The translations under genes and the position numbers were made by a program. Shown here piece by piece: positions 46,120 through 48,370 of a stretch of DNA of 64,000 bases. The notes beneath the pieces were generated by a model. The model was not told the DNA's origin. It was given only the letters and a program-made list of their open reading frames with translations, and did not search any database. Source of the DNA: Tardiphaga robiniae (GTDB lineage: Bacteria; Pseudomonadota; Alphaproteobacteria; Rhizobiales; Xanthobacteraceae); NCBI RefSeq assembly GCF_001618955.1, contig NZ_LVYV01000034.1, forward strand, positions 310,001-374,000. The letters run 5' to 3'. Position 1 is the first letter of the stretch; every line of letters starts with the position of its first letter.

Positions 46120-46938
46120 ATGCTGGCCTTTATCGATGGAAGCGGAACGATCAACGACTCCCCAGTCTACGTAATGGCCGGCTACCTTGCGAGGGCAGAC
46201 GCGTGGGAAGCTTTCACGATTGAATGGAAGGCCGCATTGGACCACCCGAAGGCAATTAAGTACTTTAAAATGTCGGAAGCGTTTAGTCGGCGTGGGCAAT
46301 TTGCCGGGTGGGATGAAGCGTTGCGGGACGCGCGTCTTCGAATGTTGCCCTCAATAGTCAACCGCCACGCAATCTCTGCGATCATATTTGCTGTCTCAAG
46401 TGACGGGTGGAAAAACTACGCCGTCGGTCGGCTTAACGAGAAATACCACGACCGACCGTATTTCTTCGCGTTTCATACCATCATGGCGTCTGCTGTTAAA
46501 TATTTAGCTGAAAAGGGCATCAGAGAAAAAATTGACTTTGTCTTCGATGAAGAGGGAGGGGAATCCTCCAGACTAATGCTTGAAAGTTTTGATGGCTGGG
46601 CAGAAGTCGCGCCGAGCCACCTCAAAGAGTACATCGGGCAAAGACCAATTTATCGAGATGAAAAGAACACTTTGCCGCTGCAGGCCGCCGATCTTCTAGC
46701 TTGGCACGTTAGAAGGTCTTTTGCCGAAGGAATTCAAGGAAAGGACGTATCGCAATTGAGCTCCGCAATGCCCGAGCTTTTTGAAGTTGAGCAAGCAAGA
46801 TCTTTATGGGATGTGAATGATGTGAAGCGTTCGATTGATGGAATTCTTGTGAGGAGTTTTATTCTAGGATTGAATGGCGTGCCGTTAACTTTGCCAGATC
46901 CAACTACGGCGATCTGGATTTCGAGAAAAAGAGATTAG
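46120..46938 (+). CDS. DUF3800-domain protein
   Basis: The 272-residue protein starts MLAFIDGSGTINDSPVYVMA. DUF3800 hallmarks are an early Asp-x-Ser-type motif (FIDGSGT; the family usually has DESG), a mid-protein acidic motif (FVFDEEGGESS) and the C-terminal LPLQAADLLAWHVRRS. These suggest an RNase H-like fold with three acidic residues. Its role is unknown; relatives occur near mobile elements and defence genes. This gene is visibly AT-richer (about 48% GC) with codons unlike its neighbours, so it was probably acquired horizontally. No Shine-Dalgarno sequence is obvious. Confidence 0.82.
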   Translation: MLAFIDGSGTINDSPVYVMAGYLARADAWEAFTIEWKAALDHPKAIKYFKMSEAFSRRGQFAGWDEALRDARLRMLPSIVNRHAISAIIFAVSSDGWKNYAVGRLNEKYHDRPYFFAFHTIMASAVKYLAEKGIREKIDFVFDEEGGESSRLMLESFDGWAEVAPSHLKEYIGQRPIYRDEKNTLPLQAADLLAWHVRRSFAEGIQGKDVSQLSSAMPELFEVEQARSLWDVNDVKRSIDGILVRSFILGLNGVPLTLPDPTTAIWISRKRD

Positions 46939-47828: not shown

Positions 47829-47885
47829 CCCGGTTGGTCGCGCTGCGCGGAGCAAAGTTCATGCGCATATTGGTCTTCGCAGGTG

Positions 47886-47913
47886 TTGACAATATTCCTT
47901 TAAGGACTATTAT
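47886..47913 (+). promoter_or_regulatory. sigma-70-type promoter of the putative RNA gene
   Basis: A consensus -35 box TTGACA (47886-47891) is followed after 16 nt by TATTAT (47908-47913). This is the clearest housekeeping-type promoter in the window. It sits in a local AT-rich patch, points rightwards, and predicts a start near 47920. Confidence 0.7.
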
Positions 47914-47919
47914 CTGAAT

Positions 47920-48301
47920 TGTCCGGTTCGCGAGGGGCGCTTCATGAGGCGTCTTGAGGTGGAACAGGGATGCGGCGCCTGCGGGCGGGAGGGAGACGTT
48001 CCCTCACGCACTCGGGAGGCCTTGGGTCACCGTCCGGCCCCACTACGGGGGTCTGCCACTCATGCTGGCTGGACGTGGCATTGGTGAACGGCGGGAAACC
48101 GTCGGGATCAGCGGAGTGCGGAGCTCTGCGCCTTTGCCCGGAAGAACGGTCCCGGGGACAGAAATCGCCGCGGTGGCGCGCCGTGAGGCGTTGCGCGGTT
48201 GCAGCTTGCCGGCGTTCCGGCGGAGCGGATCGCGACAGAAACCACCCCTTGCGCCTCACGGCGCGCCGCCACCCCTCATGTTTCGAGGGGAGACGATCCG
48301 C
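47920..48301 (+). ncRNA. putative structured non-coding RNA, about 380 nt, family not recognised
   Basis: Downstream of the promoter there is no credible protein on either strand, but there are many paired segments. These include GAGGGA/TCCCTC (47989-48005), TGCCAC/GTGGCA (48054-48080), a CCGG-CGTT-CCGG stem near 48210, and a long stem 48172-48190 with 48252-48273 (core CGCGCCGTGAGGCG). Another is CCCCTC/GAGGGG (48272-48290). GCGGATCG (48225-48232), inside the loop of the long stem, is exactly complementary to CGATCCGC (48294-48301) outside it, a possible pseudoknot. It does not show the conserved sequences I know for RNase P RNA or tmRNA. The 3' end is uncertain because no U-run is seen. Confidence 0.5.
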
Positions 48302-48370
48302 ACAGCTCGGGCTCATTGAGCCGCGAGACAGCGGAAGCGTGGCTGTTTGAAATTTGAATCGGGAGAGGCG

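What the first reader, a model, noticed from the sequence alone, without database searches (positions are those of the whole stretch)
47886..48301. Promoter-driven, heavily structured non-coding locus of unknown family
TTGACA-16 nt-TATTAT is the best housekeeping promoter in the window, and it points into about 380 nt with no credible protein. That sequence has a long GC stem (48172-48190 with 48252-48273), several local hairpins, and an 8-bp match (48225-48232 with 48294-48301) that would make a pseudoknot. The combination looks like an abundant structured RNA, yet none of the conserved sequences I know for RNase P RNA or tmRNA are present. The Arg/Pro-rich minus-strand frame across it (47942-48316) is better explained as a shadow of the RNA. 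It could be a known RNA family I cannot name.
Basis: partly seen in the sequence, partly recalled or inferred. Interest (0 to 1): 0.7.

Follow-up and report, generated by a model that had tools for sequence, protein, structure and literature searches.

The report
Multi-copy structured RNA gene family
The stretch is one of many scattered copies of a large, intricately folded RNA gene with its own promoter, seen so far in one family of bacteria and in no RNA library searched; what the RNA does is not yet known.

Summary
The promoter (47886-47913) is the only site of at least 10 of 12 in the window. No Rfam family matches. Relatives occupy 16 places in the window's genome and occur in 62 of 119 genomes of the bacterial family, but in none of 239 other genomes sampled from the class. 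Among 53 diverged copies, 71 of 124 base pairs show changes on both sides; covariation is 0.314, against 0.177 shuffled and 0.07-0.11 slid. A promoter-like site at a fixed distance precedes 88 of 108 copies (controls 3 and 5). The frames across it are not coding. The long stem is real; the proposed pseudoknot is chance. A second RNA class of about 530 nt, sharing promoter block and tail, occupies the same sites in sister species. Copies are gained, lost and homogenised. Best reading: a new family of large RNA genes, probably acting in trans. Transcription and function remain unproven.

The parts
47886..47913 (+). sigma70-type promoter, TTGACA-16-TATTAT
   Evidence: 11 of 12, only site of at least 10 of 12 in the window; equivalent site of at least 9 of 12 in 88 of 108 copies, controls 3 and 5 of 108
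47920..48360 (+). body of the structured RNA (start and end approximate; the transcript was not measured)
   Evidence: alignment of 53 copies and pair counts; start inferred from promoter, end from the last conserved bases
47922..47970 (+). 5' domain: helix 47922-47932 with 47960-47970, enclosing hairpin 47935-47942 with 47947-47954
   Evidence: helices 1-3: 92.5-93.4% of cells paired, 9 of 18 pairs with changes on both sides (coordinates)
47972..48171 (+). core domain closed by 47972-47977 with 48166-48171: 47978-47992/48002-48016; 48018-48033/48146-48159; hairpin 48036-48041/48048-48053; hairpin 48055-48059/48065-48069; 48074-48084/48131-48140; 48089-48094/48099-48104
   Evidence: helices 4-12 (87.5-100% paired); coordinates
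48172..48270 (+). long hairpin 48172-48191 with 48251-48270, with inner helices 48194-48200/48228-48234 and 48208-48212/48217-48221
   Evidence: helices 13-15 (96.6, 83.0 and 81.3% paired; 20 of 32 pairs with changes on both sides)
48272..48290 (+). hairpin 48272-48276 with 48286-48290
   Evidence: helix 16, 82.1% paired, 1 of 5 pairs with changes on both sides: weaker
48306..48327 (+). terminal hairpin 48306-48314 with 48318-48327
   Evidence: helix 17: 9 of 9 pairs with changes on both sides, but only 72.5% of cells paired, because part of the family has a different 3' end
48339..48360 (+). conserved 3' tail GTGGCTGTTTGAAATTTGAATC, resembling the boxA of the genome's own rRNA leaders
   Evidence: 14-nt motif 21 times in G000 and 23 in G016, reversed pattern 0; 29 of 30 loci examined are element ends; present in place in only 38 of 94 copies of this class

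Best explanation
The window holds one copy of a dispersed family of intergenic RNA genes. Each copy is a housekeeping-type promoter followed by about 430-440 nt of RNA with a conserved multi-helix fold, ending in a hairpin and, in part of the family, a short conserved tail. Shown here: the family, the conserved fold, the fixed promoter, the lack of coding, the lack of a constant neighbour, gain and loss of copies between sister species, occupation of the same sites by a second RNA class, and homogenisation between copies. Inferred: the copies are transcribed constitutively into stable RNAs; because neighbours differ while products are alike, the RNA acts in trans as a common product supplied by many genes (an RNP or structural RNA, provided in the manner of rRNA genes) rather than controlling the gene beside it; copies move and are replaced together with the repeat-rich intergenic blocks they sit in, by recombination between copies. 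What the RNA binds or does is not known.
For: Family and range: with 0 of 239 as control. Fold: 71 of 124 pairs and 582 cells with changes on both sides, against 47.5 and 198.8 in shuffles and 37-45 and 110-146 in slid versions. Promoters: 88 of 108 copies, 86 of these 88 with the -35 box 32-38 nt before the first helix. Not coding. No constant neighbour: 94 of 95 copies overlap no called gene; next gene downstream opposite strand 50, same strand 44, none 1; ordinary neighbours. Exchange at one site. Homogenisation: the window core is 0.895 identical to its G016 counterpart while the flanks are 0.962 and 0.945, but 0.963 to a paralog in its own genome.
Against: No expression data. Patchy distribution (57 of 119 family genomes without a match) and site polymorphism also suit a selfish element. 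No trans partner was found. The structure was derived from the sequences it was scored on, which flatters the percentage paired. Of 108 copies, 20 lack a promoter-like site of 9 of 12.
Confidence: 0.6

Rival explanations
1. A selfish, non-autonomous mobile element whose transcript serves its own spread (RNA-guided or otherwise), with the fold conserved because mobility needs it.
For: Many copies, patchy distribution, presence and absence at the same site in sister species, replacement by another class at three sites, neighbouring palindromic repeats.
Against: No transposase, reverse transcriptase or integrase among the 25 most frequent neighbour families shown (of 116; 93 of 199 flanking proteins scanned). 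No match in plasmids or phages, and no exact core pattern in viral contigs. At the one site with element-free relatives, whole intergenic blocks differ and no clean insertion with target duplication was seen. Several sites are shared by sister species. Mobility machinery could be encoded elsewhere.
Confidence: 0.3
2. A boxA-bearing decoy or antitermination RNA: the tail binds the Nus factors used by rRNA operons, so the RNAs tune rRNA transcription.
For: The 12-mer GGCTGTTTGACA of many element tails is in both rrn leaders of G000.
Against: Only 38 of 94 copies of the window's class have the tail in the expected place; the window copy differs from the rrn 12-mer by one base; boxA lies at the 3' end here and in the leader in rRNA.
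Confidence: 0.06
3. A cis-acting element (leader, terminator or DNA-level palindrome) with no function as a free RNA.
For: It is intergenic, hairpin-rich and stands beside palindromic repeats.
Against: Own promoter at a fixed place; downstream genes in both orientations (50 against 44); long-range, multi-helix covariation.
Confidence: 0.03
4. A protein-coding gene on the minus strand (47942-48316) or plus strand.
For: Open frames of 121-126 aa in the window.
Against: Negative coding scores; frame not kept, indels not in threes, no third-position excess.
Confidence: 0.01

Closest known systems
Large ornate bacterial RNAs (OLE, GOLLD, ROOL)
   Same: Several hundred nt, covarying multi-helix fold, no known coding.
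   Different: No Rfam match; many chromosomal copies per genome here. That the others are few-copy or phage-borne is recalled; of PMC12286853 only the search listing was seen.
Dispersed structured repeats such as bcr elements of the Bacillus cereus group
   Same: Many intergenic copies with RNA structure (bcr details recalled; only search listings seen).
   Different: Other host group; here a conserved promoter at a fixed place and extensive covariation.
CGTC REPs and Br-REP1/Br-REP2 of Bradyrhizobium and Rhodopseudomonas (PMC3733652 passages; PMC5082802 abstract and passages)
   Same: Same bacterial group, intergenic, high copy; such palindromes stand just upstream of several copies.
   Different: Those are palindromes of 20-40 bp; this is a promoter plus about 440 nt of multi-helix RNA. 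[quoted passage not shown] whether that is related is unknown.
Mobile/repeat sequence candidates as defined in PMC11109978 (passages)
   Same: Many copies per genome, orientation to neighbouring genes not constant.
   Different: No frequent transposase, integrase, nuclease or helicase neighbour in the list shown.
rRNA genes
   Same: Strong promoter, non-coding, multi-copy, homogenised; part of the copies share a boxA-like 12-mer with the rrn leaders.
   Different: No sequence relation; more places per genome; gained and lost between sister species.

Membership tests
Any Rfam 15 family (including RNase P RNA, tmRNA, 6S, HEARO, OLE, GOLLD, ROOL) | covariance-model score at the family's gathering threshold | tested here: not met
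   0 matches in the window; at the locus only weak hits, best E 0.37, far below gathering; none at gathering in 7 other loci or 4 loci with the second class, where the best was mir-5882, E 0.014, 30.8 bits against 95
Large structured non-coding RNA | long, non-coding, with covarying structure | tested here: met
Large structured non-coding RNA | existence as a discrete transcript | not testable with these tools
   no RNA-seq; promoter evidence only
Mobile/repeat sequence candidate | multiple copies per genome | tested here: met
   16 places in G000, 10 in G016
Mobile/repeat sequence candidate | association with transposase, integrase, nuclease or helicase genes | tested here: inconclusive
   none in the 25 families shown of 116; 93 of 199 flanking proteins scanned
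Mobile element | clean insertion against an empty site, with or without target duplication | tested here: inconclusive
   presence and absence found at one site, but the whole intergenic block differs
CGTC REP / Br-REP2 | 20-40 bp palindrome with a CGTC-type tag | tested here: not met
   the element is about 440 nt of multi-helix RNA; such palindromes are separate neighbours
rrn-type boxA site | the boxA-like 12-mer of the genome's rRNA leaders | tested here: inconclusive
   one base off in the window copy; tail in 38 of 94 copies; no binding test

The most novel reading that the evidence does not exclude
One family of alphaproteobacteria carries an undescribed superfamily of large RNA genes: at least two classes, about 37 places in the window's genome, each locus with its own strong promoter, homogenised like rRNA genes and exchanged as cassettes at shared intergenic sites, together forming an abundant RNA component of the cell with an unknown structural or regulatory role.
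Probability: 0.4. Interest if true: 0.92.

Novelty: new variant of a known kind. Interest (0 to 1): 0.8.

Why it matters
Apart from rRNA, tRNA and some mobile elements, bacteria are not known (as far as I recall) for keeping dozens of copies of a large structured RNA gene. Here fold and promoter are conserved in copy after copy, so the RNA is probably made in quantity, yet it is in no RNA library searched. Naming the family would let transcriptome data from Tardiphaga, Rhodopseudomonas and Pseudolabrys be re-read. The replacement of one class by another at the same site gives a tractable case of concerted evolution outside rRNA, and such repeats lie at many contig ends of draft genomes.

Tried and rejected
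RNase P RNA, tmRNA and every other Rfam family: no match. Protein on either strand: rejected. Plasmid or phage carriage: no match for the window copy; exact core patterns of both classes gave 0 in viral contigs; the second class gave two plasmid records, each covering 11% of the query. A constant partner gene: none seen; PADLOC gave 12 families, each in 1 or 2 of 93 proteins. A universal boxA tail: rejected, 38 of 94. Target duplications: sought, not seen. Literature: ten searches of an open-access library listed no paper that, from its title and abstract start, describes this family; one search returned mostly eukaryotic papers and was uninformative. Papers seen: PMC11109978 (passages), PMC3733652 (passages), PMC5082802 (abstract, outline, passages), PMC4842269 (passages), PMC2267715 (none of my terms occurs). 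Supplements could not be read.

Limits and dropped rows: one search scores at most 15, at most 13 and at most 21 candidates per genome, so those copy numbers are lower bounds. Some places lie at contig ends and may be halves of one copy. Of the 83 loci held, 79 carry the core and 4 do not. Six loci were left out of the alignment; one of them, L137, is a true copy and is in the alignment. Alignment A1 has the window copy and 52 others, chosen from 131 profile hits (the same place can occur twice among them) by dropping those over 88% identical. Model R1 uses 37 of these 53. The gene caller is my own, trained on 35 long ORFs; it missed the ORF at 46120-46938.

Full report
Observation. The promoter TTGACA-16-TATTAT at 47886-47913 scores 11 of 12 and is the only site of at least 10 of 12 on either strand of the window under the rule used. 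The three open frames across the locus have negative coding scores (-27.6, -30.1, -31.6), whereas the DUF2259 and rpe genes beside it score +102.3 and +99.1. The RNA strand folds at -225.3 kcal/mol, z -2.61; the other strand has z -1.93. Rfam has no match at gathering score in the window and only weak hits at the locus.

It is a repeat family. A search with 47870-48365 found it in 21 of 41 related genomes, in many places per genome; the fullest matches start at the -35 box and end 450-480 nt later. A pattern from its core is in 21 of 198 genomes of the bacterial family, with the reversed pattern at 0 in each genome listed. Of 83 held loci with the pattern in named genome records, 79 carry the core; they come mainly from Tardiphaga, Rhodopseudomonas and Pseudolabrys. 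A covariance model of the centre (R1) finds it in 62 of 119 family genomes and 31 of 47 genera, with 16 places in the window's genome, and in none of 239 other genomes sampled from the class. The window copy has no match in plasmids or phages, and its exact core pattern none in viral contigs.

RNA-level selection. Fifty-three copies were aligned and the pairs counted. Of the cells, 91.2% form standard pairs (shuffles 83.1; slid partners 40-49); 71 of 124 pairs have changes on both sides (shuffles 47.5, sd 3.0; slid 37-45); 582 cells have such changes (198.8; 110-146); the covariation score is 0.314 (0.177; 0.073-0.106). The structure was derived from these sequences, which flatters the percentage paired; the excess of double changes is the stronger sign. 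Its pseudoknot is not: 154 of 382 cells, complete in 1 of 53. The weakest helices are the hairpin at 48272-48290 and the terminal one, which part of the family lacks. Against coding: 552 of 642 indel runs are not multiples of three, 47 of 52 copies have a stop in the minus frame, and substitutions do not favour third positions (1942, 1700, 1960).

Promoters. Of 108 distinct copies with enough upstream sequence, 88 have a promoter-like site of at least 9 of 12 just upstream, 86 of these with the -35 box 32-38 nt before the first helix. The same test gives 3 of 108 further upstream and 5 of 108 on the reverse strand. Among the sites, promoter segments of different sites in one genome are 0.35-0.89 identical, the cores 0.70-0.99. 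Eight of the 17 rows share a T-rich block before the promoter.

Context. By my own gene caller, 94 of 95 copies overlap no gene; the next gene downstream is on the opposite strand in 50, the same in 44, none in 1. Of 199 distinct flanking proteins, 93 were scanned; the 25 Pfam families shown (of 116) are ordinary, and some recur because sister species share a site. Palindromes of the CGTC or Br-REP2 kind (PMC3733652 passages; PMC5082802 passages) stand just upstream of several copies.

A second class. At the site of copy L041 three relatives (G016, G004, G001) carry a different sequence with a similar promoter block and the same tail; from first helix to tail it is 524-545 nt in 31 loci hits. 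At the site of L036, G016 and G004 carry the second class (G004's contig ends there), while G009 and G001 carry neither, with 75 and 87 nt between the flanks. At the site of L031 the two flanks are about 3.8 Mb apart in G016, the left one beside a copy of the window's class and the right one beside the second class; in G001 and G004 the second class lies beside the left flank. The second class has at least 21 places in the window's genome (at the scoring cap) and is in 31 of 119 family genomes. Its 5' part also covaries: 8 pairs and 20 cells with changes on both sides, against 3.7 and 5.2 in shuffles, but slid versions reach 3-9 pairs and 5-13 cells, so on 20 similar sequences this is a weaker case. 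Its 3' part reads to me like an H-type pseudoknot; that was not counted.

Homogenisation and turnover. At the rpe site the window copy's core is 0.895 identical to that of G016, although the flanks are 0.962 and 0.945; it is 0.963 identical to the paralog L037 in its own genome. The three subclass-B sites are as alike within a genome (0.968-0.989) as between orthologs (0.947-0.989). Other pairs are less telling: at site L033 orthologs are 0.930-1.0 alike, and at L043 the G000-G001 pair is only 0.726 (all). Of 16 other genomes of the genus with a fetched rpe locus, 3 have a match to the window copy near it (the second class was not sought there, and some loci are cut by contig ends). One, G004, has unrelated sequence between rpe and the DUF2259 gene.

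The tail. GTGGCTGTTTGAMA occurs 21 times in G000 and 23 times in G016, the reversed pattern 0 times; of 30 loci examined, 29 are element 3' ends (22 second class, 5 window class, 2 a variant) and one lies inside what reads as a gene. Both rrn leaders found in G000 carry GGGCTGTTTGACAAG. That this is a boxA is recalled knowledge of rRNA leaders, not a test. Only 38 of 94 copies of the window's class have the tail in the expected place, so it cannot carry the main function.

Mechanism and verdict. Shown: family, fold, promoter, non-coding, turnover, exchange, homogenisation. Inferred: transcription, stability, action in trans. Promoter and fold kept in copy after copy, with changing neighbours and similar products, is what one expects of a gene family that supplies one RNA in quantity. 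Patchy distribution and site polymorphism keep a selfish element alive as the main rival. Ten searches of an open-access library listed no description, which does not prove that none exists. I rate it a new RNA family of high interest and file it as a new variant of the known kind 'large or multi-copy structured RNAs'.

Noticed in passing
L214:870-1475, L229, L230, L224, L307, L308: A second class of large structured RNA (about 530 nt) with a similar promoter block and the same tail, at least 21 places in the window's genome; its 3' part may hold an H-type pseudoknot.
   Followed up: partly
L284 and L285 (rrn leaders of G000): Both rRNA leaders carry GGGCTGTTTGACAAG, sharing the 12-mer GGCTGTTTGACA with the tails of many elements.
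   Followed up: partly
G000 contig ends (for example C3, C6, C8, C15, C19, C21, C55) and several G009 contigs: Many element copies lie at contig ends, so these repeats probably break draft assemblies.
   Followed up: no
L031 flanks in G016, about 1.234 Mb and 5.048 Mb: The two flanks of one site are about 3.8 Mb apart in a sister genome, each beside an element copy: a possible rearrangement between copies.
   Followed up: partly
L155 (G004), between rpe and the DUF2259 gene: The interval that holds the RNA in the window holds unrelated sequence in this sister genome.
   Followed up: partly
window 46120-46938 +: A 272-aa ORF whose codon use is unlike that of the neighbours (not called by my caller); possibly acquired.
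   Followed up: no
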